Source of the DNA: a virus
IMG/VR virus record: IMGVR_UViG_3300045741_000043
Location: 1-24,008 of that record
Strand: one strand, 5' to 3'
Length of the DNA: 24,008 nt
Position numbers and translations under genes: made by a program. The notes under the pieces were generated by a model. The model was not told the DNA's origin, did not search any database, and saw only the letters and a list, made by a program, of their open reading frames with translations. Below, piece by piece: positions 13,520 through 18,120 of the stretch (the first letter of the stretch is position 1; the number at the start of each line of letters is the position of its first letter).

Positions 13520-14570
13520 CTGATTTCTCCGAGTCCATTGAGAGCTTTGCTCTCTTGCGCATGTTTTTCCAGACAGGATTGTGGGTATACACACTTCCAA
13601 GGAAGTTTAAGTCTTTGCTCATCTCTGGTTGTAAAGCGTGATGTATGAGCATCGTATCATGTATAGTCCCCCGGATGGGGAAGCCGAGAAATTTGAACAG
13701 CCATTGCATGTCGTAGTTGCCATTTTGAAATACCTTCGAGTTAGGTGTCGCGAGTAAAGTGCGGACGCACTCCCAGGCTTCAATTTCCATCTCGTGACTT
13801 ACCCAGTACGATCCGTTATTAGTCCTACGGTCCCAGAAGGGAATGCAGATCGCGCGATCATCTGCGGAGAATCCAACACAGGTGATGTGTCGCCTGGCTG
13901 GCTTGGTTTCGATGTCAATGCTAAGGACTGCATCGCTTTTGAGAAGTCCGATCCAGCGTTTGATGTCGCCAATGCTTGGGCTAATCCAGATTTCTTTTCT
14001 TTTAGCTCTCGAAGTTGAGATTGACTTTTTGAAATCTGTAATGACAATTGGTCTGAGGGACCAGTTACGCAAGACGGCAGATGGATGATAGGTTGGCATG
14101 ATTCGACATCCAGATAGAAGCTTGGACTCAGCCACGTACCCTCGGAGTTTCGAGACACCAGTATGCCCAAAGAGCGCCCAGAGGGCCGAATTACCCAGCG
14201 CAAAACATAAGTCCCATCCACGAGAAAGCTCTTCTTGAAGTCGCCATACTTCGGGTAAGTATTTGGGACGAAGATACTTCCCGGCACCCGCAAGTGGTTG
14301 TAGGGTATAGGTAGCGGGCCAACGAGGGTCTGGTTGCTCCAGTTTGATTGCCGCAAGCTCTCGGATGACATCGATCTTTGAAAGACAAAGGTTCCGTAGA
14401 TCATTGCGATCTGGTCTAAGATTGAAGACGTTTGTATAGTGGATGCTCGTCGGGTCGATGCCCGCTTCTTTGAACATTTTTCTGAGCTCTTGTCCTGACT
14501 GGCCGACGAACGGCCGCTTCGCGATTTCTTCCTGCTCACCATATGCTTCTCCAACAGCGATGATTTTCAT
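13512..14570 (-). CDS. uracil-DNA-glycosylase-like domain fused to 3'-5' exonuclease (Exo I/II) half of a polymerase
   Basis: The protein has 352 residues. Residues 1-175 carry the UDG family 4/5 signatures: GEAYGEQE (7-14), PFVGQSG (20-26), TNVFNLRP (46-53) and YHPSAVLRN (161-169). The N-terminal CxxC of family 4 iron-sulfur enzymes is absent, so the cluster is probably lost. Residues about 205-345 are a DnaQ-like exonuclease: Exo I DIE (Asp219, Glu221) and Exo II FQNGNYDMQW (Asp287), followed by HDTMLIHHALQP. It then stops, before Exo III. Exo III is in the polymerase ORF two genes on. Related phages carry these parts as one chain, so this is a split polymerase. GGAGG lies 4 nt before the ATG. 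It follows directly after an intrinsic terminator. Confidence 0.85.
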   Translation of the reverse strand: MKIIAVGEAYGEQEEIAKRPFVGQSGQELRKMFKEAGIDPTSIHYTNVFNLRPDRNDLRNLCLSKIDVIRELAAIKLEQPDPRWPATYTLQPLAGAGKYLRPKYLPEVWRLQEELSRGWDLCFALGNSALWALFGHTGVSKLRGYVAESKLLSGCRIMPTYHPSAVLRNWSLRPIVITDFKKSISTSRAKRKEIWISPSIGDIKRWIGLLKSDAVLSIDIETKPARRHITCVGFSADDRAICIPFWDRRTNNGSYWVSHEMEIEAWECVRTLLATPNSKVFQNGNYDMQWLFKFLGFPIRGTIHDTMLIHHALQPEMSKDLNFLGSVYTHNPVWKNMRKRAKLSMDSEKSDD

Positions 14571-14580
14571 GTGGCCTCCA

Positions 14581-14606
14581 ATAAAAAGGAGGCCCTAAGG
14601 GCCTCC
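14581..14606 (-). terminator. intrinsic terminator on the minus strand
   Basis: The minus strand reads GGAGGCCC-TTA-GGGCCTCC followed by TTTTTAT: an 8-bp GC-rich perfect stem, 3-nt loop and T-tract. It lies between the DUF6378-like gene (ends 14644) and the UDG/exonuclease gene (starts 14570). The T-tract runs into the Shine-Dalgarno region of the latter, so the replication genes downstream need readthrough or antitermination, or an unseen promoter. Confidence 0.85.
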
Positions 14607-14643
14607 TCCATGCTCTGATTTTCTGATCGCCGTTTCAGTCAGC

Positions 14644-15147
14644 TTATTTACTGACTCCTGCTGCGGCTTTGAAAGCGGAGACGGCGTTTCCAACTCCAGT
14701 AGCAAGTGCGCTACCAGGACCGTTTGGCTTTGGAGGATTTGCCGAGAGAGTTCCGCCAGAGAGATTGAGTGGAGTTTGAACTGTGCTAGACTTTCCAGTA
14801 TCGAGTGGCTTACCAGCTTGTCCGCTTTTATCACTCGAGCCAAGATTTGATGTGGCTCCAAATGCGGCCATTTCACCTGCAATTGCGAAATATACTGCTC
14901 CATCAATGTAGTTATCCTCGTGGTTGATAGATGCAGGAATGCGACTGATCTTGGCAAGGACCATAGTCATTGCTGCATCGTGTGCTGAAAATTGCATTCC
15001 GAAGTACGCGGAAAGCAGTTCTGCAAAGCGAGTGAGATTTACAATCGGCTCGCCATAGGTAGCGGCTCTGTCTCCAGTTGTAAGGCCAATTCCTTTTTCC
15101 AGGATATTGGCTCTAATGGGCTTTTCAGTTTGCACTGGCTGACTCAT
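14644..15147 (-). CDS. DUF6378-family protein with low-complexity C-terminal tail
   Basis: The protein has 167 residues. Residues 20-95 (LTTGDRAATYGEPIVNLTRFAELLSAYFG...MVLAKISRIPASINHEDNYIDGAVYFAIAGE) match the pattern of the short DUF6378 phage protein family (GDRxxTYGdp...KxxRi...xDnyxDaxxYxai). Family members usually end near there. This one has an extra 70-residue Ser/Gly/Thr/Pro-rich tail, then a hydrophobic SALATGVGNAVSAFKAAAG end. The biochemical function of the family is unknown. The start overlaps the previous gene by 23 nt, with AGGA upstream. A strong terminator follows directly after the stop. Confidence 0.75.
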   Translation of the reverse strand: MSQPVQTEKPIRANILEKGIGLTTGDRAATYGEPIVNLTRFAELLSAYFGMQFSAHDAAMTMVLAKISRIPASINHEDNYIDGAVYFAIAGEMAAFGATSNLGSSDKSGQAGKPLDTGKSSTVQTPLNLSGGTLSANPPKPNGPGSALATGVGNAVSAFKAAAGVSK

Positions 15148-15358
15148 CTGCGATGTCCTTTAAGTATTGTTGACAATAGAGTATCATCTGCTCTAATCCA
15201 TGCGTGTCTTTTAGAACTCGCATGGAACCCATTGCTGCCCCTGCGTAGATACGGGACATTCTACCTGCGTGTGGATGATCAGTCAATTTCTTGCATAAGT
15301 CTCTTGTAATCAACTGACTTTCTTCATCCATTTCTTTTACTTCTTTAGCAGTCTCCAT
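15125..15358 (-). CDS. small protein of unknown function, 77 aa
   Basis: The start at 15358 (METAKEVKEMDEESQ) is chosen because GGAGG lies six bases upstream and the ATG overlaps the end of the Tas-like gene by 14 nt. A longer ORF reaching back to 15577 lies antiparallel in frame to that gene and has no ribosome-binding site. The protein is helical and charged, with a short Gly/Arg-rich middle (HPHAGRMSRIYAGAAMG) and a C-terminal helix (LEQMILYCQQYLKDI). No family is recognised. Its position directly after the Tas-like gene makes it a candidate accessory factor, by context only. Confidence 0.55.
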   Translation of the reverse strand: METAKEVKEMDEESQLITRDLCKKLTDHPHAGRMSRIYAGAAMGSMRVLKDTHGLEQMILYCQQYLKDIADESASAN

Positions 15359-16151
15359 GAGGGACCTCCAGCCTATGTACGTGTCCAAGGTGAGCAATCG
15401 GATATGGAAGAGGGGGCTTCCTATTATGCGTGTGTTCGTAAAGGACTTCAAAGAAGTGCGCGAGGAAAAGTTTTGCAGCATAACGTTTAGCCCTCTTATC
15501 AATAAGGAATGGTGGCAGGCGGCCGACGGCCAAGTGGCCTTGTGCTTCTTTAGTGTCTTTGAATTTTCCGCTGTCAAATAAGACTTTAGCTTGATCAGCG
15601 TAGTCTAAGTTTTCATTCTTTCTGGTTTCAAGCTCCTTTCGTTTTTTATAGACCTGTCCGTAGTACGCTTTCTCTTTGCCCGATACTTTGCAAAAAGACT
15701 CTCCGATGAAATACGCGATACGCTTCATGTCAGGAGACCAGTCAATCTTCTGGCCTTTAGTTTTCTTTTGCCCTGGGACGAGTCCACAGAAACGCCAGAC
15801 GGCTCCAGCTGTGTGCGCGATGTTACAGTCAATGTTCGCTATTAGCGCGGCAGCAATGACAGGTCCAATACCCATTTGTCTGCGTGCCCAAGCACCCGCA
15901 GGATGTTCAGCAGAGTAATGATCGAGGAGCTTCGCAGTGTACGTTTCAAGCTTATCGAAGTTTCCAGTAAGCCAGTCTGCGAGATTATGTGGAAGTTCTG
16001 CTTTCGTAAGTGCTTTCCCTTGGTTCGAGTTCTTGATCCGTGCCTCTTGTACGGAATAGTAAGTCTTAACTAGAATTGCGGCTTCATTCGCAGTCAGGCT
16101 CTTGGCTGCTTCACGCAGGTCTTGCGTGAGTTTATCTATCATAAGTTCCAT
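15345..16151 (-). CDS. Tas-like (Nop/IS110 C-terminal-like) RNA-guided protein without nuclease domain
   Basis: The protein has 268 residues. Residues 94-129 (GIGPVIAAALIANID...VWRFCGLVPGQK) match the helix-hairpin-helix and following helix of the IS110 transposase C-terminal domain. The C-terminus has AKRYAAKLFLAHFFEVLYEH (221-240) and PYPIAHLGHVHRL. The N-terminal RuvC-like DEDD domain of IS110 is absent, and the IS110 serine motif (QSG) is replaced by QKKTKGQK. It is therefore not a transposase. Tas proteins of TIGR-Tas systems have this Nop domain, related to IS110 and box C/D Nop5 proteins, and the gene sits 20 nt from a TIGR-type array. I infer a nuclease-less Tas that binds array RNAs and then DNA. 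GGAG is 8 nt before the ATG; the gene is in the replication operon. Confidence 0.8.
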   Translation of the reverse strand: MELMIDKLTQDLREAAKSLTANEAAILVKTYYSVQEARIKNSNQGKALTKAELPHNLADWLTGNFDKLETYTAKLLDHYSAEHPAGAWARRQMGIGPVIAAALIANIDCNIAHTAGAVWRFCGLVPGQKKTKGQKIDWSPDMKRIAYFIGESFCKVSGKEKAYYGQVYKKRKELETRKNENLDYADQAKVLFDSGKFKDTKEAQGHLAVGRLPPFLIDKRAKRYAAKLFLAHFFEVLYEHTHNRKPPLPYPIAHLGHVHRLEVPHGDC

Positions 16152-16170
16152 AGGCTGTGCTCCAGTTTAA

Positions 16171-16721
16171 GGTTCTCTTCTTAAGAAGGCTCGATCAGGG
16201 TTAAGGTACTCTAGGGATACAGGCTCGCTTCATTCAAAGGTTCTCTATTAGTAAGGGCTCGTTTTTATCTTTGGTACTCTAGTATCTATGCAGACTCGCT
16301 TATGCGCGTGGTACTCTAGTCATAAAGGCTCATTCAGTTGTGTGGTACTCTAAACGAAGAGACTCGTTTTGGCTGTGAGGTTCTCTCGTTAGTGTGACTC
16401 ATTCTTTTAACAGGTGCTCTGTGAAGTATGACTCATTTATGTCTAAGGTTCTCTAATTCTATCAGACTCACTTGTGGAAATGGTACTCTAATCGCCATGG
16501 TCTGCATTCTCTTCCGAGGTTCTCTTCAACAGTAACTCGTTTAGAGTTGAGGTACGCTTCATAAGGTAACTCGATCTATTGATGGGTGCTTTATGTCTCA
16601 TTAACGGTTATGGTGCTCTTATTCCGTAGACTCGTTAAATTCATTGGTGCTCTTACTTTGTAGACTCGTTAGAAATATAGGTGCTCTTTGAGGACTGGCT
16701 CACTAAGGAATGAGGTGCTCT
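16171..16721. repeat. TIGR-type array: 17 edge repeats and 16 loop repeats with 9-nt spacers
   Basis: Edge repeat GGTNCTCT starts at 16171, 16205, 16239, 16273, 16310, 16344, 16379, 16413, 16447, 16482, 16518, 16551, 16585, 16612, 16646, 16680 and 16714. Between each pair lies a loop repeat (consensus GRCTCGTT; variants GGCTCGAT, GACTCATT, AACTCGAT). Spacer A is 9 nt in 11 of 16 units (others 12, 10, 8, 2); spacer B is 9 nt in 14 of 16. The usual period is 34 nt (12 units). Spacers are all different. The unit order edge-A-loop-B-edge matches TIGR arrays. Unit 13 (27 nt) has a spacer A of 2 nt, unit 10 has a degenerate loop, and 16551 (GGTACGCT) and 16585 (GGTGCTTT) are variants. Transcription with the flanking minus-strand operon is likely but unproven. 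Confidence 0.9.
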
Positions 16722-16734
16722 TCCACCAACCAGG

Positions 16735-18072
16735 CTAAAACTCAACTTTGACTTTGTTACTCACTCGCTCAAGACGCAATTGTGTCTCAAGTTTCTCTTG
16801 TGCTGGTGTCACTGCCAGGACATTAATTTCAAGCCCCAAAGCGCGATTAGCATTGAGAGCGGCTGCAGCACGAATGGATGTTCCAGAACCACACGTAGGA
16901 TCAAGAAAGTCAGTGAGTGGTCCAACTGCCATATTAAAGAAATGCTTAAGCATTGCAATAGGCTTGGCACTAAGATGACCCTCCACATTCTTAGCTGTTG
17001 GACAGGAGTACACATCATTCACGACGTTGTTAATAAAGCGATCTCCACGTGAAGCAAAGAGCGCGGTTTCATACACATGCTTGGGACGGCGTCTAAAGTC
17101 CGAGGCAATTCCGGCTCCGTCTGATTTGTGCCAGATGATTGGAAGTTCCACTACGAAAAGATTATTCGCTTTGAAAAGCGTAAGCAGTTCATCATAATAC
17201 TTCATATGGAACCAGAAGAGAAGATGTGTGCTATCGAGCGAGATTCGGTCGAGATTTTCCACGAGACAATTAGTGAGTTCCCAGAAAAGCTCCGGACTAT
17301 CTTCGTACTGCGAGTCATCTCTCTCGGAGCCCGCAGAAGCGCTGTCCTGGAAATTAATGCCGTATGGAAAATCGCAGTGGATGAAATTAAATTTCTCTCC
17401 CTGATAAAATGGAGCCCACTTAAGGAAGTCTCCTTCTTTGATCTCGTACTGCGCAGACGGTTCCATTGGCGCTTCCGCAGTAGCAATATTCTCTTCAACG
17501 CTGTTGCTCCGTAAAGGAGGGATAGAAGAATGAAGCTTTGAAAGTTCAGTATCGAGTGCAATCTTTCTCCGATTATCTACAATCGCGATTGCTTGCGAAG
17601 CACTTTTGCACGCGAGTACCTTGGGGTCGGCTTTGAGGACTTCTTCTGCGACTTGGAGATACTTGGCAACGTGGGCGACAGAGAGTCCGATGTATTCAGC
17701 TGTTTCAGTTGCAGTCTCACTTCCAAGGAGAACGTGCAGTTGTTCGACAGCAAGAACTCTTTCTTGCCAAGATATGTCTTGGCGACGGAGGTTCTCGTCG
17801 AGTTCAACGAGCTTCTGATCTGTCGTAGAGAGAGTTCCAAAATATCTGGCAGGGATTGAGCCCTGGCCCATTTGAATAAAAGCTTCAAGGCGTCGTCGTC
17901 CAGCGAGGAGATTTCCGGAGTCATCCAAGATAATTGGATGGAGAAGCCCGTGTTTTTTAATGCTTGAGATAAGGTCATCTATTCCATTTAACTCCTTACG
18001 GTGACGCTCGGAGTCGTCGAATTTAATCTCTGTAAGTGGTACGAGCACCACTTGTGGCATTGCGTCTGACAT
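16735..18072 (-). CDS. ParB-domain / DNA methyltransferase fusion (beta-class MTase)
   Basis: The protein has 445 residues and GGAG five bases before the ATG. Residues 1-150 are a ParB/Srx-like domain (VPLTEIKFDDSERHR, GNLLAGRRRLEAF at 53-65, NLRRQDISWQER at 94-105) with a helix-turn-helix (122-140). The C-terminal domain is a DNA methyltransferase with motif IV DFPYG (234-238, a Phe variant of DPPY) before motif I DPTCGSGTSI (391-400), the order of beta-class N4-cytosine/N6-adenine enzymes. Phages use such fusions for genome modification; ParB may give sequence recognition. It stops 13 nt before the TIGR-type array, so it can be cotranscribed with it. Target sequence and base are unknown. 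Confidence 0.85.
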   Translation of the reverse strand: MSDAMPQVVLVPLTEIKFDDSERHRKELNGIDDLISSIKKHGLLHPIILDDSGNLLAGRRRLEAFIQMGQGSIPARYFGTLSTTDQKLVELDENLRRQDISWQERVLAVEQLHVLLGSETATETAEYIGLSVAHVAKYLQVAEEVLKADPKVLACKSASQAIAIVDNRRKIALDTELSKLHSSIPPLRSNSVEENIATAEAPMEPSAQYEIKEGDFLKWAPFYQGEKFNFIHCDFPYGINFQDSASAGSERDDSQYEDSPELFWELTNCLVENLDRISLDSTHLLFWFHMKYYDELLTLFKANNLFVVELPIIWHKSDGAGIASDFRRRPKHVYETALFASRGDRFINNVVNDVYSCPTAKNVEGHLSAKPIAMLKHFFNMAVGPLTDFLDPTCGSGTSIRAAAALNANRALGLEINVLAVTPAQEKLETQLRLERVSNKVKVEF

Positions 18073-18120
18073 TGTGGCTCCGATACGGATTGCGGTTTAA
18101 CGGGGTATTGCCGGGTTGTA

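What the first reader, a model, noticed from the sequence alone, without database searches (positions are those of the whole stretch)
15345..16721. Candidate TIGR-Tas RNA-guided system with a nuclease-less Tas protein
A 551-bp array alternates two different 8-nt repeats with unique spacers of nearly always 9 nt. The order is edge-A-loop-B, repeated 16 times plus a final edge, with a period of 34 nt in most units. Beside it, 20 nt away, is a protein with the IS110/Nop-like RNA-binding domain and no RuvC or HNH domain. TIGR-Tas systems, in phages and parasitic bacteria, have exactly this pair: an array of tandem edge and loop repeats giving short dual-spacer RNAs, and a Nop-domain Tas protein. 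A Tas with no nuclease cannot cut by itself, so it may silence, mark or recruit another enzyme.
Basis: partly seen in the sequence, partly recalled or inferred. Interest (0 to 1): 0.96.

Follow-up and report, generated by a model that had tools for sequence, protein, structure and literature searches.

The report
Phage TIGR-TasA guide-RNA module
A phage carries an array of tiny paired guide sequences beside a small RNA-guided DNA-binding protein that has no cutting domain: a genuine but already described kind of system (TIGR-TasA, published 2025), whose natural targets remain unknown.

Summary
On the minus strand at 16721-16171 there are 17 edge repeats (AGAGNACC) and 16 loop repeats (mostly ANYGAGYC) alternating with spacers of mostly 9 nt, on a 34-nt period. 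The longest such chain is 19 elements, against at most 3 in 200 shuffled windows. The 268-aa gene (16151-15345) starts 19 nt after the array on the same strand. It passes NCBI's curated TIGR-Tas model (162.7 bits, cut-off 100), matches solved TasR and TasH by sequence, and folds like both. Its alignment begins where their RuvC or HNH domains end, so it is a TasA. An array-only DNA pattern scan fetched 12 other viral contigs, 10 of them with a Tas relative. Of 52 non-redundant relatives with full flanks, 45 have an array within 1.5 kb (control 2 of 44).

TasA with dual-repeat arrays is a known kind; Faure et al. 2025 call it the commonest Tas. This locus is a new member with slightly short 34-nt units. 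The neighbouring ParB-methyltransferase looks resident: a related phage has that gene and the next one 5 nt apart, with no Tas between. All spacer-target searches were negative. The likeliest mechanism is RNA-guided binding and bending of DNA without cutting. Function is not shown.

The parts
16171..16721 (-). TIGR dual-repeat array: 17 edge repeats, 16 loop repeats, spacers mostly 9 nt, 34-nt units
   Evidence: same class of array found beside tas in relatives
16490..16619 (-). four consecutive degenerate units inside the array (27, 34, 33 and 36 nt; repeats AAAGCACC, AGCGTACC, AATGAGAC, ATCGAGTT, AACGAGTT, AATGCAGACC)
16160..16164 (-). putative ribosome-binding site TGGAG of tasA
   Evidence: read; inference
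15345..16151 (-). tasA, 268 aa, solo Nop-domain Tas protein (stop codon included)
   Evidence: NCBIfam NF052498 E 1.2e-47; PHROG 4285 E 1.1e-37; profile against TasR 1.9e-42 and TasH 1.4e-33; fold Z 19.9 / 17.6

Best explanation
A phage-borne TIGR-TasA system. The array is transcribed on the minus strand together with tasA and cut within the edge repeats into guide RNAs of about 34 nt (half edge, spacer A, loop, spacer B, half edge). A TasA dimer holds edge and loop as box C/D-like anchors, and the two spacers pair with opposite strands of an adjacent roughly 16-18 bp DNA target, opening and bending it. Lacking a nuclease domain, the complex cannot cut by the TasR/TasH route and most likely acts by occupying the site: blocking transcription or replication of a competing element or host gene. 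Shown here: the anatomy, family membership, fold, shared strand and linkage in relatives, and the absence of fused nuclease domains. Inferred from published relatives: processing, dimer, pairing rule. Inferred only: the outcome on the target.
For: Curated model NF052498 passed (162.7 bits against a cut-off of 100). Sequence profile against PDB: TasR 9mty 1.9e-42, TasH 21kl 1.4e-33, IS621 1.3e-4. AlphaFold2 model pLDDT 89.4 matches TasH Z 19.9, TasR Z 17.6, ISCro4/IS621 Z about 13.5, next unrelated 9.3; residues 20-267 align to TasR 110-322 and 17-267 to TasH 64-308, so the N-terminal RuvC/HNH parts are missing. A protein-blind DNA pattern of the array found 12 contigs, 10 with a tas relative. 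Arrays lie on the tas strand in 128 of 130 cases, with none in shuffles, and within 1.5 kb in 45 of 52 full-flank relatives against 2 of 44 control segments. Published FpTasA and a stem-loop TasA bind processed tigRNAs (PMC12045711).
Against: No RNA or binding data for this locus. No target was found for any spacer pair: the window itself, 1.8 Mb of relatives' DNA and a few host genomes gave chance-level matches. Four degenerate units in mid-array could mean decay. The 34-nt unit is shorter than the 36 nt seen in tested systems, though L117 shares it.
Confidence: 0.72

Rival explanations
1. TasA recruits the neighbouring ParB-domain/DNA-methyltransferase protein (18072-16735) so that tigRNAs steer DNA methylation, as box C/D RNAs steer fibrillarin.
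For: The gene is directly upstream on the same strand, 13 nt before the array; it has ParB_N and N6_N4_Mtase domains; tasA-tasParB operons are reported (PMC12045711) and three relatives (L088, L097, L129) have a ParB gene next to tas and array.
Against: Homologues of the methyltransferase half near tas: none convincing in 109 loci (best E 0.009). In L148, a contig with the same MTase (44%), UDG-exonuclease (34%) and polymerase (42%) genes, MTase and UDG genes are 5 nt apart with nothing between, so the MTase looks resident and the tas module inserted. The ParB genes of L088/L097/L129 are coiled-coil-like proteins without MTase.
Confidence: 0.04
2. tasA-tigRNA regulates the phage's own genes by binding its own genome.
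For: TasA should bind without cutting, so self-sites would be tolerated; the module sits in the replication gene cluster.
Against: No spacer pair matches the window with 3 or fewer mismatches in the tandem geometry; 4-mismatch hits were 16 against a re-paired mean of 8, which is weak at that laxity. Over 42 relatives own-spacer words in own loci are at chance with matched controls (p 0.11, 0.31, 0.57 for 9-, 8-, 7-mers). Only about 24 kb of the phage is held, so sites elsewhere are not excluded.
Confidence: 0.12
3. Decaying remnant: a once active TIGR-TasA that no longer works.
For: Degenerate repeats in four consecutive units and irregular spacer lengths; some chromosomal relatives have stop codons in tas (G002, G004).
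Against: The tas frame is intact with conserved Nop residues; 10 of 16 units are exact 34-mers; the final edge and spacing to tas are clean.
Confidence: 0.1
4. An IS110-family transposase with unrelated neighbouring repeats, as some databases label it (PHROG 4285 'transposase').
For: Weak Transposase_20 and IS110 matches (Pfam E 4e-4, just under its cut-off; NCBIfam IS110 24 bits against cut-off 140).
Against: IS110 model far below cut-off while the Tas model passes; the catalytic N-terminal domain is absent (model aligns only from IS621 residue 124 on); array linked in relatives.
Confidence: 0.01

Closest known systems
TIGR-TasA systems (Faure et al. 2025, PMC12045711), e.g. Flavonifractor plautii FpTIGR
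   Same: Solo Nop-domain protein; adjacent array of alternating 8-12 nt edge and loop repeats with about 9-nt spacers; found in phages
   Different: 34-nt units rather than 36; repeat sequences AGAGNACC/ANYGAGYC; terminal box bases less fixed than the CCA seen in most relatives
Microcystis phage Mvi-JY20 tas locus (PP438412.1, L002)
   Same: Named phage with tas and an array on the same strand with cognate motifs (ACGAAACCC / ATGCGAGCC)
   Different: Array downstream with a terminator, 25% protein identity, annotated only as hypothetical protein
TasR (9mty) and TasH (21kl, 9w04)
   Same: Same Nop/coiled-coil fold and RNA/DNA-binding half
   Different: They carry N-terminal RuvC or HNH nuclease domains, absent here
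IS110/IS621 bridge-RNA transposases
   Same: Shared Nop-like RNA-binding core (Z about 13.5)
   Different: DEDD catalytic domain absent; guide array instead of one bridge RNA

Membership tests
TIGR-Tas (TasA type) | Nop-domain Tas protein of the TIGR-associated family | tested here: met
   NF052498 above curated cut-off; profile hits to TasR/TasH; fold Z 17.6-19.9
TIGR-Tas (TasA type) | Array of two alternating 8-12 nt repeats with about 9-nt spacers beside the gene | tested here: met
   published definition
TIGR-Tas (TasA type) | Array linked to tas in relatives, on the same strand | tested here: met
TIGR-Tas (TasA type) | No RuvC or HNH nuclease domain (distinguishes TasA from TasR/TasH) | tested here: met
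   268 aa; aligns to TasR from residue 110 and TasH from residue 64; no nuclease domain in Pfam; upstream is the array
TIGR-Tas (TasA type) | Edge and loop share terminal box D/box C motifs | tested here: inconclusive
   Both repeats carry GAG and end in CC/YC followed by W; relatives show clear ...CCA ends; pairing of terminal bases was only looked at by eye
TIGR-Tas (TasA type) | Processing to tigRNAs bound by the protein | not testable with these tools
   needs small-RNA sequencing
TIGR-Tas (TasA type) | Tandem-spacer targeting of opposite DNA strands | tested here: inconclusive
IS110 transposase | N-terminal DEDD catalytic domain and curated IS110 score | tested here: not met
   24.1 bits against cut-off 140; model aligns only from IS621 residue 124 on
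tasParB-tasA operon | ParB-like gene operonic with tasA across loci | tested here: inconclusive
   ParB_N domain protein upstream, but fused to a methyltransferase and resident in a relative without tas between the genes

The most novel reading that the evidence does not exclude
TasA and its tigRNAs direct the upstream ParB-methyltransferase to chosen DNA sites, an RNA-guided DNA methylation system in a phage.
Probability: 0.03. Interest if true: 0.93.

Novelty: new member of a known kind. Interest (0 to 1): 0.4.

Why it matters
What nuclease-less Tas proteins do, how arrays are renewed and what they target are open questions stated in the founding paper. This locus adds a member with 34-nt units and, with contig L148, what looks like an occupied/empty site pair suggesting that the tas-array module moves independently of its neighbours. 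The survey indicates the clade is common in phages (419 relatives in one viral scan), so a culturable representative would make the question testable.

Tried and rejected
DNA similarity of 14500-18100 to phages: none. Plasmids: no tas match. Spacer-pair targets in A + gap 0-2 + rc(B) geometry: 948 pairs over 1.8 Mb gave 0 exact and 7 one-mismatch hits against 8, 16, 9 and 10 in re-paired controls. An own-locus single-spacer excess first seen (208 observed against 167) was no longer significant with wider masking and GC-matched spacers from other loci. Host genomes: four spacer pairs of the Halomonas sp. NO4 array gave nothing in its genome and one exact hit in a relative's genome, where the backwards control also gave one. 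A conserved partner gene: none in 109 loci; the second largest 'family' is antisense translation of arrays. Scanning viral contigs with single spacer pairs was not done, because a few chance hits per scan are expected in a collection that large. PADLOC has no model for the protein.

Full report
OBSERVATION. The window is a 24,008-base virus record. Read on the minus strand, 16721-16171 holds 17 edge repeats and 16 loop repeats. Edge is AGAGNACC in 15 of 17 copies. Loop is ANYGAGYC with small departures in 15 copies and AATGCAGACC in one. Spacer A is 9 nt in 15 of 16 units, spacer B in 12 of 16, and ten units are exactly 34 nt. The longest strict chain has 19 elements; 200 dinucleotide shuffles of the window never exceeded 3. 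tasA starts at 16151 on the same strand.

PROTEIN. Pfam gives only a sub-threshold IS110-type match, which is presumably why such genes are labelled transposase. PHROG 4285 matches at 1.1e-37, and NCBI's curated equivalog NF052498 'TIGR-Tas system RNA-guided endonuclease' matches at 162.7 bits against a cut-off of 100. A 27-sequence profile finds TasR (9mty, 1.9e-42), TasH (1.4e-33), IS621 (1.3e-4) and ISCro4 (5.4e-4) in the PDB. The AlphaFold2 model (pLDDT 89.4, pTM 0.85) aligns with TasH at Z 19.9, TasR at 17.6 and IS110-type transposases at about 13.5, against 9.3 for the best unrelated helix match. The alignment covers residues 17-268 and begins at TasR residue 110 and TasH residue 64. The nuclease half of those proteins is therefore missing: this is TasA. 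The curated model's word 'endonuclease' does not fit this protein.

ARRAY AND PROTEIN BELONG TOGETHER. A DNA pattern of the array alone, with no protein information, picked 12 contigs from 2.9 million; 10 of them hold a Tas relative, including one diverged relative (L008) and three near-identical phages (L009, L011, L012). Protein-based searches then gave 39 and 419 viral relatives (80 kept of the latter) and 13 in bacterial genome contigs. In all fetched loci, 128 of 130 motif-defined arrays lie on the tas strand and none appear in shuffled DNA. Of 52 non-redundant relatives at 38% identity or more with full flanks, 45 have an array within 1.5 kb, against 2 of 44 control segments. Most have 36-nt units; L117 shares the 34-nt unit. 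Clear examples are L004, L007, L020 and Microcystis phage Mvi-JY20, where the array follows tas and ends in a terminator-like hairpin and T run.

SURROUNDINGS. The minus-strand gene cluster is replication-like: PD-(D/E)XK, AAA, ParB-methyltransferase, UDG-exonuclease, family A polymerase, DUF3987. No gene other than tas recurs strongly near tas in 109 relatives; a DUF6378 family occurs in 7. The ParB-methyltransferase upstream is the tempting partner. But contig L148, which carries relatives of the MTase (44%), UDG-exonuclease (34%) and polymerase (42%), has MTase and UDG genes 5 nt apart. In the window the array, tasA and DUF6378 sit exactly between them. The simplest reading is a module inserted between two resident genes. 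Three relatives (L088, L097, L129) have a ParB-like gene after tas and array, resembling the published tasParB, but without a methyltransferase.

TARGETS. Using the published geometry (spacer A and reverse-complement of B adjacent, gap 0-2; the order A then rc(B) was worked out here from the reported 8-nt 3' overhangs), no spacer pair beats re-paired controls in the window or the fetched loci. Single spacers show no significant own-locus excess with matched controls. Four pairs of the Halomonas sp. NO4 array gave no hit in its genome and one chance-level hit in a relative. These are limited tests: the phage is incomplete and its host unknown.

COMPARISON. Faure et al. 2025 (PMC12045711) define TIGR arrays, name the solo-Nop protein TasA, call it the most common Tas, and leave its function open. 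This locus meets the protein, array, linkage and no-nuclease features; the box motifs and targeting were inconclusive here. It is a new member of a known kind. Its small peculiarities are 34-nt units, loosened terminal box bases and four degenerate units in mid-array.

MECHANISM. By analogy with characterised TasA, TasR and TasH, the array should be processed within edge repeats into about 34-nt dual-spacer RNAs that guide a TasA dimer to DNA and bend it. Without a nuclease the likely effect is occupancy, for example silencing of a rival element or host gene. The steps after RNA binding are inference.

Noticed in passing
L003:2705-3046 (Mycobacterium phage Ohno789, upstream of gene 72): Cluster-A mycobacteriophage tas relatives lack dual repeats but have several tandem hairpins just upstream by eye, like the published stem-loop TIGR arrays; annotated as transposase or hypothetical.
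   Followed up: no
L148:1-1879 against window 14570-16735: Apparent empty site: MTase and UDG-exonuclease genes 5 nt apart in L148, separated by array, tasA and DUF6378 in the window.
   Followed up: partly
window 15345-16151 (NCBIfam NF052498 / PHROG 4285): Curated names 'endonuclease' and 'transposase' are applied to a protein with no nuclease domain.
   Followed up: yes
G002:C1:136013-136786 and G004:C364:76-873: Chromosomal tas copies (Acidobacteriaceae KBS 96, Propionivibrio aalborgensis) show one in-frame stop each inside or at the end of the match, possibly decay in prophages.
   Followed up: no
L127:2109-3226 (coordinates on the minus strand reading): Two long arrays on the strand opposite to the detected tas and some kilobases from it; perhaps a second system.
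   Followed up: no
window 14644-15147: DUF6378 gene next to tasA; members of the same family lie near tas in 7 of 109 loci.
   Followed up: partly
window 16490-16619: Degenerate units sit in the middle of the array, not at one end as is usual for CRISPR arrays.
   Followed up: no
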